Below, piece by piece: positions 17 through 28,186 of a DNA stretch of 35,477 bases (position 1 is the stretch's first letter; each line of letters begins with the position of its first letter). Position numbers and translations under genes: made by a program. Source of the stretch: Lachnospiraceae bacterium (GTDB lineage Bacteria > Bacillota > Clostridia > Lachnospirales > Lachnospiraceae); the NCBI GenBank assembly GCA_017938285.1, contig JAGBBW010000059.1, forward strand, positions 1-35,477, read 5' to 3'. Below the pieces are notes generated by a model, which did not search any database, was not told where the DNA came from, and worked only from the letters and a program-made list of their open reading frames with translations.

Positions 17-107
17 TTTTGTTGTATAATGGGTTTGACGTACAGAACACCTCTTTCGTTGGAATTTGTCTGCAAACTTATTATACAACAAAAGGTGGTC
101 TGTACGT
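17..107. repeat. Two interleaved inverted repeats (A-B-A'-B')
   Basis: Arm A (17-30, TTTTGTTGTATAAT) is a perfect reverse complement of A' (80-93). Arm B (38-51, ACGTACAGAACACC) matches B' (94-107) as a reverse complement at 13 of 14 positions. The order A-B-A'-B' means the two hairpins cannot form together except as a pseudoknot. The loops are too long for an ordinary terminator. The A arms contain TTGTATAAT, which recurs in the BlaI-like dyads at 1291-1306 and 5834-5862. The function is unknown; it could be an operator pair, a folded RNA, or the end of an element cut by the window edge. Confidence 0.7.
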
Positions 108-166: not shown

Positions 167-194
167 GTTACAATTCTTGAAATTTTCCCTTTTT
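167..194 (+). promoter_or_regulatory. Group 5 sigma-like promoter of the sigma-holin pair
   Basis: GTTACA at 167-172, then 16 bases, then CTTTTT at 189-194. The same layout occurs at 3317-3344 and 4207-4234, before the two wall hydrolase genes. From memory, TcdR/BotR/TetR/UviA sigma factors recognise TTTACA-like -35 and CTTTTT/CTCTTT-like -10 elements. Placement in front of the sigma gene itself suggests positive autoregulation. Confidence 0.65.
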
Positions 195-212
195 ACCTCG
201 TAAGGAGGGAAA

Positions 213-758
213 ATGATGGGAGAACTTGTAACTTTAATTTATGAAATAAAAAAAGACAAAAATAACTTTAATTTTTTGTTAGAACGTATGGAACCGGCGG
301 TCAACAAATATGTGCGGTTGTTATATAAAGACGAAAAAGAAGATATTCGTTCTGAATTGATGCTTGCTTTATGGGAAGCGATTGGAAATATAGAATATTG
401 TGAAAGTGACGGACAAGTCCTTAATTTTCTGAACACAGCACTTCGAAACAGATTTTATGAAATGTATAAAAAAAGCAGAAAAAAGTTTGATCATGAGTCG
501 GCTGTTAATGAAGAAACAGGAATATTTCAAACGATATTGTATGAAGGAAAGGAACTAGAAGATACAATATTTAGAGAAGACGCGATGAAAATTGTGGGGC
601 AATATAAAGGAGTCCAACAAAACATAGTGCAGTGTATTTTATTGAAAGAAATGACCGATAGGGAGATTGCTCAAAAGCTGAATCTTTCACGGCAATATAT
701 TAATCGAATACGCAGAAAACTAAAAGAGCATCTACAAAGAGAAGATTATTTTGTATAA
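213..758 (+). CDS. TcdR/UviA-like alternative sigma factor
   Basis: This is a predicted cytoplasmic RNA polymerase sigma factor of 180-181 residues, the size of the clostridial TcdR/BotR/UviA group. Residues about 30-95 look like sigma region 2 (acidic helix, then a region ending NRFYEMYKKSRKK). The C-terminus carries a region 4 helix-turn-helix (MTDREIAQKLNLSRQYINRI). Region 3 is absent. Two ATG codons lie in tandem; the second, at 216, sits better behind AAGGAGGG (202-209). The holin gene follows after 34 bases, a pairing known from tcdR/tcdE and uviA/uviB. The matching promoters at 167, 3317 and 4207 suggest that it drives itself, the holin and two wall hydrolases. It could instead be a generic phage-type sigma factor; the sigma assignment is firm, the subgroup is inferred. 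Confidence 0.78.
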   Translation: MMGELVTLIYEIKKDKNNFNFLLERMEPAVNKYVRLLYKDEKEDIRSELMLALWEAIGNIEYCESDGQVLNFLNTALRNRFYEMYKKSRKKFDHESAVNEETGIFQTILYEGKELEDTIFREDAMKIVGQYKGVQQNIVQCILLKEMTDREIAQKLNLSRQYINRIRRKLKEHLQREDYFV

Positions 759-792
759 ATGAAACTAGCAAGCAAAAGAAAAAGGTGGCTGT

Positions 793-1263
793 ATGGAAAA
801 TAAAGGAGTATACATAAAGGGGATTATAACAGGCGTGGTAACTTTTATTAGTGGAAAACTGGAAGGAATGGGACCAGCATTACTTTGGTTTATGCTGCTG
901 ATGGTAGTGGATTATATTTCTGGGATGTTGGCATCTAAGAAAGAGGCATTAGAACATCCAAATGAAAAAGAGTATGGCTGGAGCAGCAAAAAGGGATTGA
1001 TAGGAATTTATAAGAAAGTAGGATATATTGTAACCGTATTGGTTGCAGTTAGTACGGATTATCTGCTGTCTGATTTGATAAGTGAGATAGGAATTGATTA
1101 TAAAGGAAGCACAATCTTTGGTTTGTTAGTATTGGTATGGTTTATTCTAAATGAAATGTTGTCAATATTGGAGAATGCAGGGAGAATGGGAGTAAAGCTT
1201 CCACAAAGTTTAGTAAAGGTAATTTGTAGGTTAAAAAACAACGTTGATAGGAAAGAAGATTAG
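793..1263 (+). CDS. Phage/toxin-secretion holin (TcdE/UviB-like)
   Basis: This is a 156-residue predicted inner membrane protein. Hydrophobic segments lie at about residues 6-22, 28-46 (LLWFMLLMVVDYISGMLASK), 74-92 and 104-122. The VDYISG motif and the following Lys/Arg-rich stretch (KEYGWSSKKGLIGIYKK) are typical of the Phage_holin_4 / toxin secretion holin family, which includes C. difficile TcdE. Holins form membrane lesions that let proteins without signal peptides reach the wall or medium. AAAGGTGG precedes the ATG. The gene probably shares a transcript with the sigma factor gene just upstream. No phage structural genes surround it, which argues against a simple prophage lysis cassette, although a remnant cannot be excluded. 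Confidence 0.82.
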   Translation: MENKGVYIKGIITGVVTFISGKLEGMGPALLWFMLLMVVDYISGMLASKKEALEHPNEKEYGWSSKKGLIGIYKKVGYIVTVLVAVSTDYLLSDLISEIGIDYKGSTIFGLLVLVWFILNEMLSILENAGRMGVKLPQSLVKVICRLKNNVDRKED

Positions 1264-1270
1264 AATGTAT

Positions 1271-1306
1271 TTGCAAAAAAATTTGAAAAATGTATAATAA
1301 TATACA
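1271..1306 (+). promoter_or_regulatory. blaI-blaR1 promoter with overlapping dyad operator
   Basis: TTGCAA at 1271-1276 and TATAAT at 1293-1298 are 16 bases apart. A dyad, TGTATA-ATAA-TATACA (1291-1306), covers the -10 region. BlaI/MecI repressors bind TACA/TGTA-type dyads over their own promoters, so this is a likely autoregulatory operator. Confidence 0.6.
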
Positions 1307-1333
1307 AAGTAGGAAGAAAGGAATAGAGAGTTT

Positions 1334-1708
1334 ATGAAAAAATTATCAGAAGCCGAATTGGAAATTATGCATATTTTATGGAGCCATAAAAATTCTCTTA
1401 CTTCCAATCAGATTTTAAATGAATTAAGTGAAACAAGAAATTGGAAGCTTGCCAGTGTAATGACGGTTTTGGCAAGGATGGCGGAAAAGGGAGCTGTTAA
1501 TTGTGACAGAAGTACCAGGACGAATTTTTATTCTGCTTTGGTGTCTGAGCAAGAATATAAGTTAGCAGAAAGCGAGACTTTTTTAGAGCGGCTCTATGAT
1601 AAATCTGCCAAAAATCTGATTGCCTGCCTGTATCAGGGAAAGAGGATGTCAAAGGAAAATATTCAGGAGCTGAGAGAATATCTGGATTCCCTGGAGGAAA
1701 AGCAATAA
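1334..1708 (+). CDS. BlaI/MecI/CopY-family repressor
   Basis: This 124-residue protein has the usual BlaI length and shape: an N-terminal winged helix (LSEAELEIMHILW, then a recognition helix around WKLASVMTVLARMAEKGAV) and a C-terminal dimerisation helix region. BlaI-type repressors bind dyads over promoters and are inactivated by proteolysis triggered by the partner membrane protease. That partner follows directly, its ATG touching this gene's TAA. The dyad at 1291-1306 is the probable operator. The regulon may extend to the lipoprotein promoter at 5834-5876, which carries a related dyad. There is no beta-lactamase or penicillin-binding protein gene beside it, so the signal is probably not classical beta-lactam induction. 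Confidence 0.88.
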   Translation: MKKLSEAELEIMHILWSHKNSLTSNQILNELSETRNWKLASVMTVLARMAEKGAVNCDRSTRTNFYSALVSEQEYKLAESETFLERLYDKSAKNLIACLYQGKRMSKENIQELREYLDSLEEKQ

Positions 1709-3316
1709 ATGGGAATATTACTAAATATTATGGAAGCTTCCATAGCAGGAGGCATGGCCGTTATTGTCTTTGCTGTTTTATCTTTTGTTTTTGGAAGAAA
1801 AAGTAAGAAGAAATATAAAATGCTGATATGGTGCTTGATTATGCTACGATTTTTGATTCCATTACAATCCAGGGAGCAATCAGTTTTGGTTCAACTGGAA
1901 GTACCGGTATATCGTTTAAATGAAGTTTCAAACAGTACCACAGAATTGCCAGTGGATAGCGCAGAACAAGTGATGAATGAATTATCGAATGTGGCTGTGG
2001 ATAAATCGAAAAGTCATAGGCTTACTTCAGGGAATATCATGGTGCTTGCATGGGGCATGGGTACTTTCCTGTTTTTTTCTTATTATGTATTTACACAAAG
2101 AAGAGTATTTGAAAAATTGCGGAAAAAAAGCAGCCTTTGTATAGATGAACAAATGTTACATCAGGCAAAGGGACTCTCGAAAAAGATAGGGTTAAAGGAA
2201 TGCCCACAGATATATATTATGGCCGACAAAAAAATCAGTCCTTTTTCTGCTGGTTTATTCAAGAACAAAATTTATCTTCCGGATACAGAGTACTCAAAAA
2301 AAGACTTAGAATATATTTTGCAGCATGAACTAATACATTGTAAAAATCATGATATTTTGATAAAAGGTCTAGTGATTTTCGTTAATGGAATACATTGGTT
2401 TAATCCATTTGTATGGCTGATGAGAGTACTAATTAATCAAGATATAGAATTAATCTGCGATGAAAAAGTACTTAGTACTGCAACAAAAGAAGAGCGCAGA
2501 GAATATAGCGAAATTATTATGTCTTGTATCAGTGCGGGAGCAACAAAAGCTGCATTGACAACAGGGTATGTGCAGGGAACAAGGTTTATTAAATACCGAT
2601 TTGATAACATTTTTATGGTAGAAAAAAGAAGAACCAGCATTGTTAGTGTAATTGGCACATTATTGGTGATGTTGTTTGTAAGTAATGGACTTCGAATGAC
2701 AGAGGTGTTGGCAGAAACAAAGCAGTGCGATATTCCGATTTGTTATGGGATTGAGATTAGAACGGATGTCGACAGTAACGGAACAGAGGAAAGAGTGTAT
2801 GTAAAAGATTGTATAGGGTTGGATGAAACATATACGCAGCTGGTTGTACAGTTTTCGAATGGAACAAAAGATTTTACTAATTATTCCGGATACTGGAATT
2901 CGTATATGGTATCGGGAGACTTAAATGCAGATGGAGTGACAGAAATAGTCTTGTTTCGCAGTTCTGTTGGAAGTGCATATGGGTTAGGTGAAGTAAATGT
3001 TTTACAGATTGAAAATCAGAAGTGGTATGAGATTCCGAATGTGTTTATAAAAAATCCAGATTTGCAGGAGGAACAGCCAGAGGATTTTATTGCACGTCAA
3101 TTTGGTGTTTCCTGTGTGGCAGCAACTATAGTTGAAACAGATGGAAGAAAGCTACTTCGTTTAATAATGGATGAGGATATTACCGAGGATGTTGTAAAGT
3201 GTATAGATTGTTCCTGGACAGAGGAAGGATGGTACATAGAGAATATACAAATGATAATGGATTATTATGCAGAATACAAAGATATGGAGTTACTGGAAAA
3301 TAATTTGCTAAAATAG
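1709..3316 (+). CDS. BlaR1/MecR1-like M56 membrane protease with atypical sensor domain
   Basis: This is a 535-residue integral membrane zinc protease. Hydrophobic segments lie near residues 7-28, 36-52, 110-128, 220-240 and 312-328. The M56 motif HELIH is at 206-210, and a candidate third zinc ligand lies in DIELICDEKVL (about 245-255). In the BlaR1 family, ligand binding outside activates the cytoplasmic protease and removes the repressor. Residues about 331-535, outside the membrane, do not show the penicillin-binding SxxK/transpeptidase motifs of BlaR1. They hold Asp/Asn-rich repeats (DVDSNGTEE, DLNADGVTEIVLF) resembling VCBS/FG-GAP Ca-binding repeats. The ligand is therefore unknown. The gene is translationally adjacent to blaI and ends just before the sigma-type promoter at 3317. 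Confidence 0.85.
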   Translation: MGILLNIMEASIAGGMAVIVFAVLSFVFGRKSKKKYKMLIWCLIMLRFLIPLQSREQSVLVQLEVPVYRLNEVSNSTTELPVDSAEQVMNELSNVAVDKSKSHRLTSGNIMVLAWGMGTFLFFSYYVFTQRRVFEKLRKKSSLCIDEQMLHQAKGLSKKIGLKECPQIYIMADKKISPFSAGLFKNKIYLPDTEYSKKDLEYILQHELIHCKNHDILIKGLVIFVNGIHWFNPFVWLMRVLINQDIELICDEKVLSTATKEERREYSEIIMSCISAGATKAALTTGYVQGTRFIKYRFDNIFMVEKRRTSIVSVIGTLLVMLFVSNGLRMTEVLAETKQCDIPICYGIEIRTDVDSNGTEERVYVKDCIGLDETYTQLVVQFSNGTKDFTNYSGYWNSYMVSGDLNADGVTEIVLFRSSVGSAYGLGEVNVLQIENQKWYEIPNVFIKNPDLQEEQPEDFIARQFGVSCVAATIVETDGRKLLRLIMDEDITEDVVKCIDCSWTEEGWYIENIQMIMDYYAEYKDMELLENNLLK

Positions 3317-3344
3317 GTTACAAATAATTCAAATACTTCTTTTT
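3317..3344 (+). promoter_or_regulatory. Group 5 sigma-like promoter of the SleB-like hydrolase
   Basis: GTTACA at 3317-3322, 16 bases, then CTTTTT at 3339-3344. It shares TAGGTTACAA with the promoter upstream of the sigma gene and a longer block of similarity with the region before the peptidase gene at 4278. It is a likely target of the sigma factor encoded at 213. Confidence 0.62.
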
Positions 3345-3373
3345 TGTTAGTGTAATCATTGTATAACAAAAAA
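3340..3373 (+). promoter_or_regulatory. Leader hairpin next to the ribosome binding site
   Basis: Arms TTTTTTGTTA and TAACAAAAAA form an inverted repeat that runs into the AAAGGAGG ribosome binding site of the hydrolase. It could slow translation or stabilise the transcript. The stem is A/T rich and may be weak. Confidence 0.4.
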
Positions 3374-3384
3374 GGAGGCAGTAT

Positions 3385-3861
3385 ATGGCATACGGAGAAT
3401 CATTAAGTACAGCAAATGAATTAATTGGAAGAGATGGGATTGATTTGTTGACCCGGTTGATTTATGCAGAAGCACTCAATCAGTCGGAATCTGTTAAAAA
3501 AGGAGTTGCTTTTGTTGTAAAAAACAGAAAAGAAAAAAATTCTTCTGTATTTGGAGGAAATACATGGGAAGGAGTTATTTTGGAGAAAAATCAGTTTACG
3601 AAGATAACAAGTTCCTATGCATTGCAGCCGGATACGTCATCTGAGGAATGGAAAACAAGTCTGGATATTGCCAGAAATATTGCAGACAAAACGAATCCGG
3701 TTGGTAACTGCTTGTGGTATGCAAAGAGTACCTATTATGCAAGAAAAGTAAGCACAGAAAACGGTAAAGAATATTATTGTCAGGGGACTGGTGTCTATAA
3801 TGAAGTTATTGAAAAGACAGTTCTTGGAGATTACACGTTTTATCGTTTACTGGGATATTAG
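3385..3861 (+). CDS. SleB-like cell wall hydrolase without signal peptide
   Basis: This 158-residue protein matches the Hydrolase_2/SleB fold: LLTRLIYAEALNQSESVKKG with the conserved Glu of the lytic transglycosylase-like active site, then VAFVVKNRK, WEGVILEKNQFTKI and the late GDYTFYRL. Enzymes of this family cut peptidoglycan glycan strands, classically in spore cortex germination. There is no signal peptide or membrane anchor at the N-terminus (MAYGESLSTANELIG), unlike secreted SleB proteins. Export through the holin encoded at 793 or release on lysis would explain this. The start has a near-perfect AAAGGAGG. Transcription probably starts at the 3317-3344 promoter and ends at the terminator at 3866-3900. 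The family call is by motif reading, so substrate specificity is uncertain. Confidence 0.75.
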   Translation: MAYGESLSTANELIGRDGIDLLTRLIYAEALNQSESVKKGVAFVVKNRKEKNSSVFGGNTWEGVILEKNQFTKITSSYALQPDTSSEEWKTSLDIARNIADKTNPVGNCLWYAKSTYYARKVSTENGKEYYCQGTGVYNEVIEKTVLGDYTFYRLLGY

Positions 3862-3865
3862 AAGT

Positions 3866-3900
3866 AAAAAAAGTGGCATCAGTTCGGTGCCACTTTTTTT
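3866..3900 (+). terminator. Rho-independent terminator after the SleB-like gene
   Basis: AAAAAAAGTGGCA pairs with TGCCACTTTTTTT (13 pairs) around a nine-base loop, ending in seven T. It is symmetric enough to work on both strands. Confidence 0.85.
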
Positions 3901-4206
3901 ACGAAAAATTAACATGACAATAATATTATCGGAATGTATAATGAAATACAATAAGATAATAGGCAAGAGAAAGGATAATTGAAAAGCGACGGTAAAGAGA
4001 AGGAAAAACATTAAAAATTTTAATACGCTATGTTTGAATGAGTAATAGAGTAACAGATGAGTGACGCTAAAAATGTAAAGAGAGAAGGGGATAGAAAACG
4101 AATATAAATTATGGTTTGTATTGTATGCATTGATTAAATGATATTTAGTTGTGTTGACAGGTTGAATAAAGTGTAAATAAATAGTTATACAATATATGAA
4201 ATGAAG
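3901..4206. other. Non-coding AT-rich gap
   Basis: There is no convincing gene between the terminator and the next promoter. The only notable element is TTGACA at 4154-4159, with TAAATA 18 bases later (4178-4183), a weak vegetative promoter candidate for the peptidase gene. The composition is strongly AT rich and contains short decayed-looking frames without ribosome binding sites. Confidence 0.5.
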
Positions 4207-4234
4207 TTTACAAAACTACAGAAATACTCTTTCT
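4207..4234 (+). promoter_or_regulatory. Group 5 sigma-like promoter of the NlpC/P60-like peptidase
   Basis: TTTACA at 4207-4212, 16 bases, then CTTTCT at 4229-4234. An overlapping CTCTTT at 4227-4232 is an alternative -10. It is the third copy of the layout found at 167 and 3317 and the closest to the TTTACA / CTCTTT consensus recalled for TcdR/BotR. Confidence 0.62.
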
Positions 4235-4240
4235 ATTAGA

Positions 4241-4254
4241 TGTAACCGGTTACA
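4241..4254. promoter_or_regulatory. Perfect 14-bp palindrome in the leader
   Basis: TGTAACCGGTTACA is its own reverse complement. It lies between the -10 element and the ribosome binding site of the peptidase gene. Its shape resembles LacI-family operators (TGTAAnCGnTTACA), but no LacI-type regulator is present in the window. It may instead act as a leader hairpin. Confidence 0.5.
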
Positions 4255-4277
4255 AAAAAGAAAGGAGTATAATACTT

Positions 4278-4928
4278 ATGTCATTTTTAACAAATTTAAA
4301 TCGGAAGTGTATGGAATATACGCAATTTACCTATGATGGTATGTCGATTAAAATTCCTTACTGCATGGGAGGAAAAGCCACACCGGCAGAGATTAGAGCG
4401 GCAATTTCTGCATGGGTCGGTACAAAATCCAAAACACAAGAAGAAATTCAGGAGTATGTGTCTGCTAACGAAGAGATATTTGGACTTGACTGTTCTGGTT
4501 TCGTTTATTATGTGTTAAATGAAGCAACAGGCGGTGCAGTAAGGGAGTATTTTGAGGATGCCCTTGGAGGAACGTTAATTTATAGGAACGGAGTTTTAGC
4601 GTCGGAGTTATCAAGTATATATCACGGAACTAAAATTACGATGGCGAAAGATATTAAGCCGGGCTGTACCATACAGACTAATGAGGGTGGTCATGTTCTG
4701 GTTGTCCATTCTGTAAACAAAAATGCTGCCGGAGCAGTTACCAGTATTGTATATGCACATTCCGGTAAAACGGGTCCACATCATGGTTATATCACTATCG
4801 GAGATGAAACCAAGGACTTAAATCATGCAAGTCAGACATGGCGGGATACAGTATATACTAATCCAGCCTATTTACAGACGGTTTATACCCATACAATACT
4901 GTTAAAGCCAGTACAGGATTTTGTATAA
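4278..4928 (+). CDS. NlpC/P60-like peptidoglycan peptidase without signal peptide
   Basis: This 216-residue protein has the papain-like NlpC/P60/CHAP arrangement. The catalytic Cys72 lies in LDCSGFVYYVLNEA and the candidate His139 in EGGHVLVVHSV, with a further conserved-looking AHSG at 160-163. Such enzymes cut stem peptides or cross-links of peptidoglycan. The N-terminus is polar and has no signal peptide or anchor, so it needs lysis or holin-assisted release. AAAGGAG precedes the ATG. The gene is monocistronic, with its own sigma-type promoter at 4207 and the terminator at 4943. With the SleB-like enzyme it would attack both glycan and peptide parts of the wall. An amidase-like activity is an alternative. 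Confidence 0.7.
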   Translation: MSFLTNLNRKCMEYTQFTYDGMSIKIPYCMGGKATPAEIRAAISAWVGTKSKTQEEIQEYVSANEEIFGLDCSGFVYYVLNEATGGAVREYFEDALGGTLIYRNGVLASELSSIYHGTKITMAKDIKPGCTIQTNEGGHVLVVHSVNKNAAGAVTSIVYAHSGKTGPHHGYITIGDETKDLNHASQTWRDTVYTNPAYLQTVYTHTILLKPVQDFV

Positions 4929-4992: not shown

Positions 4993-5778
4993 TTATCCTG
5001 CTGTTGGATAGTAAAAGGTAATGGCAGCAATCTTGTCGTCCTTAATAAGTAACCCAAGATGAACTGGCAGAGTATCCGTTGGGCGTTGGATATCAGCTAC
5101 CATGATATAGTCAAACTGATTTGTCCAACGGTATGTTTGGTCGCTATACTCATAATCCGGATCAAAATCAATGGGACTACGGGGATAAGCAGTATCGTTC
5201 CATCCATAGAATCCCCGGACTTTTTCTCCGATAAAATTATTGTTAAAATTTACAATGGCCATATTAGGATATAAGTCAAGAATATCTTTCACAGTCATTC
5301 CGACAGAAAGACCATTTGTTAAAATATGGCTCTCGTCTATTATGGAATAGCCATAAAAATCTATACATCCCGTGAATATGTGTGTACCTTCATCCAATGC
5401 ATAATAATATTCCACACCATTTTTGCGTACTGTATACCAGGTTCCATAAGTTGCGCCGGGCTGTGTACCAAAAATTTCATGATAAATCTCGTTTTTATTG
5501 ATTTCGTCAAAGTCATAAAAAACAATTTCTGGTATTACTTCAACCTCTTCTGGAAGAAATACCTGTATTGGTGCCGGAGTAGCAGTTGGTACAGGAGAAG
5601 GAGGATTGGTTGGAGTCATGGTTGGTAATGGGGATGGGGTGTGGGTTGGAGCAGTTGTTGCTACAGGCGTAGTAGTAATCGCAGGCTGTTCTGAAACAAT
5701 ACTTTGGGATGTTTTTTGTCTGCATCCAGAGAAAAGACACAGGGTGAAAAATAAGAGAGAGACAAAAACTTTTTTCAT
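4993..5778 (-). CDS. Secreted lipoprotein of unknown function
   Basis: This 261-residue protein has a lipoprotein signal: KK at the start, a hydrophobic core and a lipobox LFSGC with Cys19 as the lipidated residue. Residues about 25-75 form a Pro/Thr/Ser-rich spacer (repeats like THTPSPLPTMTPTNPPSP), which would lift the domain away from the membrane. The globular part (about 75-261) is rich in Tyr, Phe and Asp and is not recognised. The promoter is TTGACT-N17-TACAAT on the minus strand, its -10 covered by a perfect dyad (5834-5862) related to the blaI operator. It may therefore belong to the BlaI regulon and act in sensing or protecting the wall. That role is inferred only from the regulatory site. 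Confidence 0.8.
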   Translation of the reverse strand: MKKVFVSLLFFTLCLFSGCRQKTSQSIVSEQPAITTTPVATTAPTHTPSPLPTMTPTNPPSPVPTATPAPIQVFLPEEVEVIPEIVFYDFDEINKNEIYHEIFGTQPGATYGTWYTVRKNGVEYYYALDEGTHIFTGCIDFYGYSIIDESHILTNGLSVGMTVKDILDLYPNMAIVNFNNNFIGEKVRGFYGWNDTAYPRSPIDFDPDYEYSDQTYRWTNQFDYIMVADIQRPTDTLPVHLGLLIKDDKIAAITFYYPTAG

Positions 5779-11868: not shown

Positions 11869-13125
11869 GTGATTAATAAATTTTCTTGTCATAATTTTCG
11901 AAATATAAATGCAGATAATTTAGAATTTGAAAAAATCAATATTTTAATCGGACCTAATAATTCAGGAAAAAGTAATTTCATAAAAGCGATAACTTTTTTC
12001 TCTGAAATGTTAAAAAATTCCGGGGAAGGAAATTTGAAATCTGCGTTTTTAAATGCAGTTGCACGTAATGGCTGGGAACATTCATTATATAAGCATGCTG
12101 ATCCGGATGCTCCAATTGATTTTACATGGGAAATTTGCCTGAATGGTGAGCCGGTACGATATAAATTTTCATTTGGAGTAGGAAGTACTGTTGAAAAATG
12201 TAATATTGTTTTGGAAGAATTGAGTTCAGCTGAACCCAAAATGGGATATGACAGGGAGTTTAATTATTTTAGATGTCATGATCATAAAATTGGGTTGGGC
12301 AATTTTTCAACAGCAATAAAGGTCGGGGCAAAAAATCGTAGATTAGCCTTTGAAGTAGATAGCAAAGAAACTTTAATTATGCAATTTAAAGATATTCTTT
12401 TGAAAAATCAGAATATTTATGGGAATGAATTAATACGTGTAAATATTGCACAATTATTATATGAGTTGCAAAAGTATTTTGAGGGCTTTAGCGTTTATAC
12501 CAGTGCACAGTTTGAGTCTGGTAAATTGCGGGAGCCGGTTAATATGAAGGCTGTAGATGATTCTTTGAATAAGAATGCGTCTAATTTTACAAATGTATTT
12601 AATAGGTACAAATCGGAAGATGTATTTTGGAAAATTAATTTTGAAAAAAAATTAAAAGAACTGATTCCAAATCTACAAATGGCAGATACTGTAAATGCAT
12701 ATGATAAATTGATTTTTAAGATGGTATATGACGAGGAACAGTATGATTTATCTGATGTATCGGAAGGTACACTGAAAGGGTTGATATTGAATATGTTAAT
12801 CAATATGCCAATGAAAAATCAGCGGACATTATTAGCTATTGATGAACCGGAAACTAATTTACATCCAGCGTGGCAAAAAGTTATAGGTAATTGGATACAA
12901 ACGGCGGATACGTTTAGTCAGTGCTTTATAAGTACACATTCACCGGACTTTTTGGATGTATTTACGGAAGAATTCAAAAGAGAGAAAGTAGCTGTTTTTG
13001 TCTTTGGAAACAATGATACAATTAAAAAAATACAATATAGAGATATTGTGGACGAGTTAGGGGAATGGGAACTTGGTGATTTGTATAGGACAAATGATCC
13101 TGCACTGGGGGGATGGCCATGGTAA
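11869..13125 (+). CDS. OLD/AAA-type ATPase, probable defence or mobile-element gene
   Basis: This 418-residue protein has an ABC/SMC-like ATPase core split by an insertion. The Walker A GPNNSGKS lies at 28-35 after FRNI, a typical AAA_21/OLD start. A signature-like LSDVSEGTLKGLI, the Walker B LLAIDEPETNLHP and the H-switch ISTHSPDFLD lie in the last third. The start is GTG behind GGGGAGGAG. A second gene begins inside its last codons, as in two-gene ATPase plus TOPRIM-type systems related to OLD nucleases. That partner is frameshifted here, so the pair may be inactive. The gene is AT richer than its surroundings and sits among repeats, which suggests horizontal gain. The antiphage role is inferred from family habits. 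Confidence 0.8.
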   Translation: MINKFSCHNFRNINADNLEFEKINILIGPNNSGKSNFIKAITFFSEMLKNSGEGNLKSAFLNAVARNGWEHSLYKHADPDAPIDFTWEICLNGEPVRYKFSFGVGSTVEKCNIVLEELSSAEPKMGYDREFNYFRCHDHKIGLGNFSTAIKVGAKNRRLAFEVDSKETLIMQFKDILLKNQNIYGNELIRVNIAQLLYELQKYFEGFSVYTSAQFESGKLREPVNMKAVDDSLNKNASNFTNVFNRYKSEDVFWKINFEKKLKELIPNLQMADTVNAYDKLIFKMVYDEEQYDLSDVSEGTLKGLILNMLINMPMKNQRTLLAIDEPETNLHPAWQKVIGNWIQTADTFSQCFISTHSPDFLDVFTEEFKREKVAVFVFGNNDTIKKIQYRDIVDELGEWELGDLYRTNDPALGGWPW

Positions 13126-28043: not shown

Positions 28044-28060
28044 GCGCTATGTAACTAAAC

Positions 28061-28178
28061 AATCTTCAGGGCAGGGTGCAATTCCCGACCGGCGGTACAG
28101 TCCGCGAACAAAAGGAAAATCCTTTTGCCGAAATGGTGTGATTCCATTACCGACAGTAAAGTCTGGATGAGAGAGGAG
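28061..28178 (+). promoter_or_regulatory. FMN riboswitch (RFN element)
   Basis: The conserved RFN core is present: CTTCAGGGCAGGGTGCAATT, CCCGACCGGCGGTACAGTCC, a variable stem (AAAAGGAAAATCCTTTT), GTGTGATTCC and GACAGTAAAGTCTGGATGAG. The end of the aptamer, GATGAGAGAGGAG, includes the ribosome binding site of the following gene. Control is therefore probably translational: FMN binding hides the site and lowers riboflavin uptake. Confidence 0.95.
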
Positions 28179-28186
28179 ACAAAAAA

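What the first reader, a model, noticed from the sequence alone, without database searches (positions are those of the whole stretch)
167..4928. Sigma factor, holin and two signal-less wall hydrolases may form one lysis/release system
A TcdR/UviA-like sigma factor and TcdE/UviB-like holin lie within 4.2 kb of a SleB-like hydrolase and an NlpC/P60-like peptidase, neither with a signal peptide. TcdR/TcdE and UviA/UviB are known to couple a sigma factor to a holin for toxin or bacteriocin release. Here the cargo would be two wall-cutting enzymes, attacking glycan and peptide bonds. No phage structural genes are near. The system could serve programmed lysis, release of vesicles or DNA, or killing of neighbours.
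Basis: partly seen in the sequence, partly recalled or inferred. Interest (0 to 1): 0.8.

Follow-up and report, generated by a model that had tools for sequence, protein, structure and literature searches.

The report
Sigma-switched holin and wall-cutter release system
A bacterium, probably of the Lachnospiraceae, carries a dedicated transcription switch, a membrane-pore protein and wall-cutting enzymes that share one unusual promoter, and relatives carry the same kind of kit with swappable enzymes, many beside a gene for an exported partner that may be an antidote, which suggests a little-known system for releasing enzymes that could kill other bacteria.

Summary
The TcdR-type promoter TTACA-N14-YYCTTT occurs exactly three times in 35 kb, directly before the sigma-holin pair, the SleB-like and the NlpC-like gene (expected 0.21). 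A fourth site elsewhere in the genome precedes a second NlpC-like gene. Of 472 genes picked in 37 sigma loci, N14 motifs precede 13: sigma, holin or effector-type by my reading. A second set of loci uses N16-17, and genome searches show the same split. In a relative without a hydrolase beside its sigma, the motif marks a muramidase gene about 630 kb away. Of 20 promoter-bearing cytoplasmic genes, 10 lie tail-to-tail with an exported or lipoprotein gene, versus 10 of 210 others. Effector parts are swappable. Best reading: a sigma-gated, holin-released lysin system with possible immunity partners, a new variant of the TcdR/TcdE-UviA/UviB kind. Co-regulation is well supported; killing and immunity are inferred. 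Against: partner-type domains also occur away from effectors, and a few motif-bearing genes are not recognisable hydrolases.

The parts
168..192 (+). TcdR-type promoter of the sigma-holin pair: TTACA-N14-CCCTTT, 20 bp before the sigma start codon
   Evidence: exact match; 3 in window vs 0.21 expected; same class of element before sigma in L005 and L068
213..758 (+). TcdR/UviA-like sigma factor, 181 aa, region 4.2 with LSRQYINR (SRQ marker)
   Evidence: TIGR02937 above cut-off; SRQ marker as described in PMC4031146
793..1263 (+). Holin, TcdE-type Phage_holin_4_1 family, 156 aa, starting 35 bp behind sigma, probably same transcript
   Evidence: PF05105 E 1.4e-29; TIGR01593 above cut-off; 47-55% identical holins right behind sigma in five relatives
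1334..1708 (+). BlaI-type repressor; no exact motif; link to the system unproven
   Evidence: PF03965 E 2.1e-30
1709..3316 (+). BlaR1/M56-type membrane protease with extracytoplasmic C-terminal part containing a D-x-N-x-D-G motif (by eye); link unproven
   Evidence: PF05569 E 1.6e-49
3318..3342 (+). TcdR-type promoter of the SleB-like gene
   Evidence: exact match; 67 bp from motif start to start codon
3385..3861 (+). Signal-less SleB/Hydrolase_2-type wall hydrolase, 158 aa (effector)
   Evidence: PF07486 above cut-off; weak match to SleB structure 4f55, E 0.015; a 35% identical protein in L066
4208..4232 (+). TcdR-type promoter of the NlpC-like gene
   Evidence: exact match; similar promoter before the paralogue on contig C73
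4241..4254 (+). Perfect dyad TGTAACCGGTTACA in the start region of the NlpC-like transcript; role unknown; also fits the cre (CcpA) consensus as I recall it
   Evidence: dyads at this place in 15 of 24 non-sigma promoters vs shuffled mean 2.1, largest 6 of 500; cre match
4278..4928 (+). Signal-less NlpC/P60- or CHAP-like protein, 216 aa (effector); 82% identical copy on contig C73
   Evidence: weak NLPC_P60/CHAP matches; DCSGF motif aligned to LytE; paralogue
4993..5778 (-). Convergent lipoprotein, 261 aa; candidate immunity partner of the NlpC-like protein; 69-70% identical copy beside the C73 paralogue
   Evidence: lipobox by home-made test; co-duplicated with the effector; pairing test

Best explanation
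The locus is a sigma-gated, holin-released lysin system. A TcdR/UviA-type sigma factor transcribes itself, the holin behind it, and separately placed signal-less wall hydrolases (SleB-like, NlpC-like, plus a second NlpC-like copy elsewhere in the genome) from promoters TTACA-N14-YYCTTT. The holin lets the hydrolases cross the membrane, in the whole population or in a lysing subset, and they act as bacteriolysins on neighbouring cells. A lipoprotein gene convergent with the NlpC-like gene, which lacks this promoter and so should be independent of the sigma, probably protects the producer. SHOWN by sequence: gene identities, shared promoter, its near-restriction to sigma/holin/effector-type genes, a spacing that differs between sets of genomes, effector modularity, frequent convergent exported partner. 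INFERRED: sigma recognition, holin-dependent export, killing, immunity. My probabilities: one regulon 0.9; holin serves the hydrolases 0.8; killing rather than self-lysis or housekeeping 0.55; partner is immunity 0.5.
For: Promoter: 3 exact sites in the window, 0 of 100 shuffles reach 3. Across 37 deduplicated sigma loci, 13 of 472 picked genes carry it within 160 bp: sigma 3, holin 2, effector-type 8; 20 shuffles give 0.5 on average, largest 4. Spacing: N8-12, N15 and N19-21 give 0 genes, N13 2, N14 13, N16 11, N17 5, N18 1. GTTTACA-N14-YTCTTT: 17 sites (reversed-pattern control 5) in five N14 genomes, 1 (control 2) in seven genomes without a strong sigma hit. The N16 version: 22 (control 6) in six genomes chosen for N16 loci, 2 (control 3) in six N14 genomes. 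Off-locus prediction: G347 has no hydrolase by its sigma, yet the motif marks a PG_binding + Muramidase protein about 630 kb away with a convergent lipoprotein. Partners: 10 of 20 promoter-bearing non-exported non-sigma genes have a convergent exported neighbour within 250 bp vs 10 of 210 others, Fisher 2.4e-7. Homologous effectors with homologous convergent partners: window/C73 (82% and 69%), L131a/b (45% and 28%), L126/L237 (60% and 47%), L005 C-terminus/G347 (47%; partners 32%, E 2e-30). L005 and L069 share an N-terminal ~490 aa (48-54% identical) with L070, L137 and L139 but carry other C-terminal parts. A plasmid carries UviB-like holins, PG-binding effectors and convergent lipoprotein or membrane-protein genes beside such a sigma.
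Against: No expression, export, killing or immunity data. The SleB-like gene has no convergent partner, and 10 of 20 promoter-bearing genes have none. L070/L137/L139 effectors are alike, but their neighbouring membrane proteins are not detectably homologous; the same holds for the convergent neighbours of L132b/L145b (76% identical effectors). Partner-type domains occur away from effectors: 13 of 13 further family hits of the muramidase partner have no muramidase ORF in their loci of about 3 kb, and the window lipoprotein domain is the C-terminus of two BlaR1-like proteins. Motif-bearing genes that do not fit: L073 (141 aa) and L128 (exported, 242 aa) of 32 in the survey; outside it, a small HTH-like protein in G347 (L195) and a repeat-rich frame of at least about 1,350 codons beside the L067 locus, which my ORF picker missed. 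Of the 17 N14 sites, 6 lie inside an ORF on the other strand and 2 before no gene I could see. Four promoter-bearing types called effector have no Pfam match or were not tested (L069 175 aa and L131; L066 180 aa and L071 177 aa untested). In the whole own genome the bare motif is not enriched (30 vs 38 reversed). 11 of 37 loci had no holin within 2.6 kb by my models; at least two of these have one a little farther.
Confidence: 0.55

Rival explanations
1. Programmed self-lysis. The sigma-holin-hydrolase regulon bursts the producer or a subset to free vesicles, DNA or enzymes; the lipoprotein is a brake, a wall adaptor or unrelated.
For: Sigma, holin and hydrolases of different presumed bond specificity under one promoter class are what a lysis programme needs; two loci carry small membrane proteins and an amidase-like gene (by eye) right behind the sigma (L129, L150).
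Against: Several effectors per genome, swappable C-terminal parts and co-duplicated exported partners are more than lysis needs and resemble polymorphic toxins.
Confidence: 0.24
2. Holin secretion route for another cargo (type 10-like, as for clostridial toxins): the hydrolases only open the wall for an unseen toxin or enzyme.
For: Holin-dependent secretion is described for clostridial toxins and holin-endolysin secretion for type 10 systems (PMC9527704, passages and section 6 read; PMC10109510, search listing only). Some motif-bearing proteins have no Pfam match (L069 175 aa, L131), and a motif stands before a long repeat-rich frame beside the L067 locus. I raised this from 0.13 to 0.15 when I checked that frame again.
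Against: Most motif-bearing genes in the survey are sigma, holin or wall-hydrolase-type; no cargo common to the loci was seen.
Confidence: 0.15
3. Domesticated or decaying prophage lysis cassette with no present role.
For: The holin has relatives, 31-52% identical, in 34 viral contigs.
Against: None of those 34 loci (255 kb held) has the sigma at E 1e-3 or an N13-15 motif; sigma, SleB-like and NlpC-like proteins gave no close relative in viral contigs; the sigma has one weak hit in phage records, E 0.01, an unverified 6.3-kb record; dN/dS between the two NlpC copies is 0.17 and between the two lipoproteins 0.29, which points to constraint.
Confidence: 0.05

Closest known systems
UviA/UviB with bacteriocin Bcn5 (Clostridium perfringens pIP404; PMC9527704 section 6 read)
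   Same: TcdR-group sigma, holin, endolysin and signal-less cargo; a plasmid-borne relative occurs here too (L095)
   Different: No Bcn5-type M14 protein among Pfam matches of the 30 window ORFs scanned; the promoter-bearing cargo is mostly wall hydrolases, often with a convergent exported partner; the window holin is Phage_holin_4_1, not BhlA
TcdR/TcdE and TcsR toxin-release loci (PMC10467148 and PMC9527704, passages read)
   Same: Autoregulated TcdR-group sigma with TTTACA-type -35 element and a TcdE-type holin
   Different: No large clostridial toxin noticed in the loci read; targets are mostly hydrolases
Type 10 secretion systems (PMC9527704 passages; PMC10109510 search listing only)
   Same: Holin plus wall hydrolase
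   Different: Gram-positive, sigma-gated, the hydrolase itself looks like the product
Enterococcal bacteriocin 41 (BacL1/BacA/BacL2): recalled, apart from the BacL2 model match
   Same: Sigma-like regulator with wall-lytic bacteriocin; the window sigma matches the BacL2 model weakly (15.1 bits, cut-off 200, E 0.016)
   Different: Holin present here; Bac41 proteins themselves were not compared
Polymorphic toxin systems (recalled)
   Same: Shared N-terminal module, variable C-terminal part, adjacent partner
   Different: Partner is exported and convergent; immunity untested

Membership tests
TcdR-group (group 5) sigma factors | Sigma-70 family with regions 2 and 4 only | tested here: met
   TIGR02937 51.3 bits vs 42.9 over residues 19-176; Pfam regions 2 and 4 seen but under their cut-offs
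TcdR-group (group 5) sigma factors | SRQ motif in region 4.2 (marker proposed in PMC4031146) | tested here: met
   LSRQYINRIRR in the window; by a regex on the last 60 aa 24 of 37 loci show SRQ[YA], 3 SKQ or TRQ, 10 no match, some of them open pieces of broken genes
TcdR-group (group 5) sigma factors | -35 element TTTACA in own and target promoters | tested here: met
   GTTTACA before NlpC-like; GGTTACA, one base off, before sigma and SleB-like
TcdR-group (group 5) sigma factors | Curated BotR model TIGR03209 cut-off | tested here: not met
   14.7 bits vs 138.35; so it is not BotR itself
TcdR-group (group 5) sigma factors | Directs core polymerase to these promoters | not testable with these tools
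   needs in vitro transcription
Toxin-secretion/phage-lysis holins | TIGR01593 cut-off and full-length PF05105 | tested here: met
   61.4 vs 40.2 bits; PF05105 profile 2-116 of 116
Spore cortex enzyme SleB | TIGR02869 cut-off, exported | tested here: not met
   26 vs 236.5 bits; no signal by home-made test
NlpC/P60 peptidases | Pfam cut-off and catalytic Cys-His | tested here: inconclusive
Bcn5 bacteriocin locus | Signal-less M14-domain bacteriocin | tested here: not met
   no M14 match among the 30 window ORFs scanned
Bacteriocin with immunity | Killing of competitors and protection by partner | not testable with these tools
   only the gene pairing statistic
Prophage lysis cassette | Lies in a phage with structural genes | tested here: not met
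   none among the 30 window ORFs scanned

The most novel reading that the evidence does not exclude
A widespread class of polymorphic lysin-immunity systems in this bacterial family and its order. A TcdR-type sigma and a holin serve a scattered, swappable set of wall-hydrolase effectors, each with its own convergent exported antidote. Two sets of sigmas read promoters that differ by 2-3 bp in spacing. Effector transcripts begin in a sequence-variable DNA dyad, an unrecognised control element, possibly the operator of a dimeric repressor.
Probability: 0.42. Interest if true: 0.82.

Novelty: new variant of a known kind. Interest (0 to 1): 0.72.

Why it matters
The papers seen describe TcdR-type sigma factors as switches for clostridial toxins and one bacteriocin. 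Here the same switch-plus-holin layout carries mostly wall-cutting enzymes in loci where no such toxin was noticed. That makes the origin of toxin-release modules testable. The promoter gives a simple genome-wide way to look for unknown effectors: two protein types without a Pfam match (L069 175 aa, L131) carry it. If the killing reading is right (inference), it would be a source of new lytic enzymes and a new view of competition among these bacteria.

Tried and rejected
Leader hairpins pairing -10 with the Shine-Dalgarno site (repeat I4): set aside as complementarity of pyrimidine- and purine-rich elements; not tested. Partner as an exclusive antidote family of muramidases: not supported. Bare genome-wide count of the motif: not enriched; position and the longer pattern discriminate. 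The other 26 motif sites of the own genome were read by script; L016 lies before a lipoprotein gene and L012 overlaps the start of a small membrane-protein gene: real or chance. One-mismatch matches in the window (12, expected 5.5) were not used. Tree of 37 sigmas: spacing labels are clustered (4 changes, as low in 4 of 200 shuffles), but with long branches, 19 unlabelled rows and one row (L071) with both spacings. An early hand count of partners (6 of 9 vs 18 of 249) was replaced. Rows dropped: L074 and L133-L135 as near-duplicates; the second L143 copy, while the two paralogous L131 genes were kept. In one search one L095 protein was kept by hand although my crude test flagged a membrane segment, and L129's 100-aa membrane-protein gene counts among the 20. 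Export tests and the ORF picker are home-made. The first lipoprotein search (9 of 98 genomes) drew in linker look-alikes; the domain alone gave 2 of 195. The genomes were chosen for N16 loci, so only off-locus hits and the contrast are independent. The statement that this is not in print rests on searches only.
Full report
WHAT IS THERE. The four proteins are real and at the stated places. Between holin and SleB-like gene lies a BlaI-BlaR1-like pair, and behind the NlpC-like gene, on the other strand and 64 bases away, a lipoprotein of 261 aa. The NlpC/P60 label is the weakest: its Pfam score is under the cut-off, and solved LytE domains align mainly at the Cys motif.

THE PROMOTER. Reading the DNA upstream of the three transcripts showed the same element, TTACA-N14-YYCTTT. 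It occurs exactly three times in the window, all on the + strand and before the three transcripts; 0.21 are expected, and 0 of 100 shuffles reach three. In the whole genome the short motif gives 30 matches against 38 for its reversed control, so the number alone means little, but one of the others lies before a second NlpC-like gene (82% identical) on another contig, which again has a convergent lipoprotein behind it (69-70% identical). PMC4031146 (passages read) names TTTACA as the -35 element of TcdR-group sigma factors, the -10 element as variable, and an SRQ motif in region 4.2 as a marker. The window sigma has SRQ.

RELATIVES. A profile of two sigmas against 397 family genomes gives matches in 151 at E 0.001, with a clear break: 13 genomes (own included) at 6e-14 or better, then from 5e-8 matches that look like general sigma factors. 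A wider profile over 392 genomes of the order gave 61 at 1e-8. I read 37 deduplicated loci in print-outs of ORFs. Holin-type genes lie within 2.6 kb of the sigma in 26 of 37 by models partly built from these loci; L072 and L095 have one a little farther away. Of five holin types tested with Pfam, one each matched BhlA and Phage_holin_4_1, one matched Phage_holin_1 just under its cut-off, and two had no holin match. Of 17 loci of weaker sigma hits, read to about 1.5 kb on each side, one matched a holin-type model (L057, whose sigma scores 70 bits with the wider profile).

PROMOTER SURVEY. Of 472 genes picked in the 37 loci, N14 motifs stand within 160 bp of 13: three sigma, two holin and eight effector-type genes, against 0.5 in shuffles (largest 4 of 20). 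Varying the spacing gives 0 for N8-12, 2 for N13, 13 for N14, 0 for N15, 11 for N16, 5 for N17, 1 for N18 and 0 for N19-21. By my reading these 32 are 7 sigma, 5 holin or holin-like, 18 effector-type and 2 that do not fit (L073, L128). Four of the effector types rest on promoter and position only: L069 175 aa and L131 have no Pfam match, L066 180 aa and L071 177 aa were not tested. Spacing labels are clustered on the sigma tree, though not perfectly. Whole genomes agree: the N14 pattern has 17 sites (control 5) in five N14 genomes and 1 (control 2) in seven genomes without a strong sigma hit (best 5e-10); the N16 pattern has 22 (control 6) in six genomes chosen for N16 loci and 2 (control 3) in six N14 genomes. 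Of the 17 N14 sites, nine stand before a gene or long frame, six lie inside an ORF of the other strand and two before nothing I could see. Two off-locus hits are telling. In G347, which has sigma and holin but no hydrolase beside them, the motif stands before a PG_binding + Muramidase gene about 630 kb away. In G556 it stands on another contig before a 348-aa relative (25%, E 8e-19) of the promoter-bearing L131 proteins. Two further hits do not fit the hydrolase picture: a small HTH-like protein with a convergent lipoprotein in G347 (L195, L211), and a repeat-rich open frame of at least about 1,350 codons beside the L067 locus.

EFFECTORS. Promoter-bearing or adjacent cargo that I tested has PG_binding, Rv2525c-like glycoside hydrolase, Muramidase, Phage_lysozyme2, CHAP, C39-like, endolysin-like or SleB-type domains; some have no Pfam match. 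They lack an export signal by my test, save one L095 protein with a flagged segment. They are modular. Five large effectors share an N-terminal ~490 aa (48-54% identical); L005 then has a muramidase part 47% identical to the G347 effector, L069 has an end unlike the others, and L070, L137 and L139 are alike throughout.

PARTNERS. Of 20 promoter-bearing non-exported non-sigma genes, 10 have a convergent exported or lipoprotein neighbour within 250 bp; of 210 other non-exported genes, 10 (Fisher 2.4e-7). Four sets of homologous effectors have homologous convergent partners that are more diverged than the effectors. The window lipoprotein has no exact motif, so it should be made without the sigma, as expected for an antidote. 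Against this: ten of the 20 lack such a partner, two sets of similar effectors have dissimilar neighbours, the muramidase-partner domain is found in 13 further ORFs, most with a signal or lipobox, without a muramidase in about 3 kb, and the window lipoprotein's domain recurs as the outside end of two BlaR1-like proteins. Immunity is therefore a hypothesis.

A SECOND ELEMENT. Behind the -10 element, non-sigma promoters often carry a dyad centred 12-17 nt downstream: 15 of 24 with at least 5 of 6 pairs, against 2.1 on average and at most 6 in 500 shuffles; 0 of 7 sigma promoters. The sequences differ between genomes and mostly centre on CG or GC (by eye), so a DNA operator seems likelier to me than an RNA hairpin. 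The window copy is TGTAACCGGTTACA at 4241-4254. The SleB-like gene shows only 4 of 6.

HOW IT PROBABLY WORKS. An unknown signal starts the sigma, which amplifies itself and the holin and turns on the hydrolases. The holin opens the membrane to the signal-less enzymes, which then act on walls outside. Producers are probably protected by the lipoprotein. The shared regulation rests on sequence; the signal, the export, the killing and the protection are inference from the families. Rivals are self-lysis, a secretion route for other cargo, and prophage relics; 34 viral loci with related holins have neither the sigma nor an N13-15 motif in the stretches held.

KNOWN AND NEW. TcdR/TcdE, UviA/UviB/Bcn5 and type 10 systems are close (PMC9527704, passages and section 6; PMC10467148, passages). 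The 2022 review PMC9527704 notes sigma, holin and endolysin around clostridial toxins and Bcn5. My searches (listings) showed no report of a TcdR-type regulon with wall hydrolases as main cargo in Lachnospiraceae; that library is incomplete. Hence: new variant of a known kind.

Noticed in passing
window 17-107: Two interleaved long inverted repeats (21 nt, 90%; 18 nt, 89%) just upstream of the sigma promoter; may be operators or a regulatory RNA.
   Followed up: no
window 4241-4254 and leaders of relatives: Sequence-variable DNA dyad at a fixed place behind effector promoters; role unknown.
   Followed up: partly
G000:C95 (L155 1018-3873) and G002:C71 (L157 3075-4946): Outside domain of the window lipoprotein reused as C-terminus of BlaR1/M56-like proteins beside BlaI-like genes; the window locus itself holds a BlaI-M56 pair, so a sensor role is conceivable.
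   Followed up: partly
L131 (G556:C10): Tandem pairs of an unknown 391/392-aa promoter-bearing protein and a convergent exported protein; no Pfam match for the one protein of each kind tested.
   Followed up: partly
L067 (reverse-complement coordinates from about 10042): An N14 promoter before a repeat-rich open frame of at least about 1,350 codons; a possible non-hydrolase cargo.
   Followed up: partly
L195/L211 (G347:C2 about 64.7 kb): N14 promoter before a 133-aa HTH-like protein with a convergent lipoprotein, next to a 280-aa CHAP/NlpC-like protein on the other strand (by eye).
   Followed up: no
L144 (G461:C63): Array of lipoprotein genes, two starting identically, beside a C39-like effector; looks like spare antidote genes.
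   Followed up: no
window 11869-13125: AAA/OLD-like ATPase with matches to many defence-system models.
   Followed up: no
window 28058-28182: FMN riboswitch before an ECF transporter substrate component, probably riboflavin uptake.
   Followed up: no
G668 contigs C137 and C840: Two versions of a sigma-holin-effector locus in one assembly with diverged CHAP effector (60%) and lipoprotein (47%); possibly two strains.
   Followed up: no
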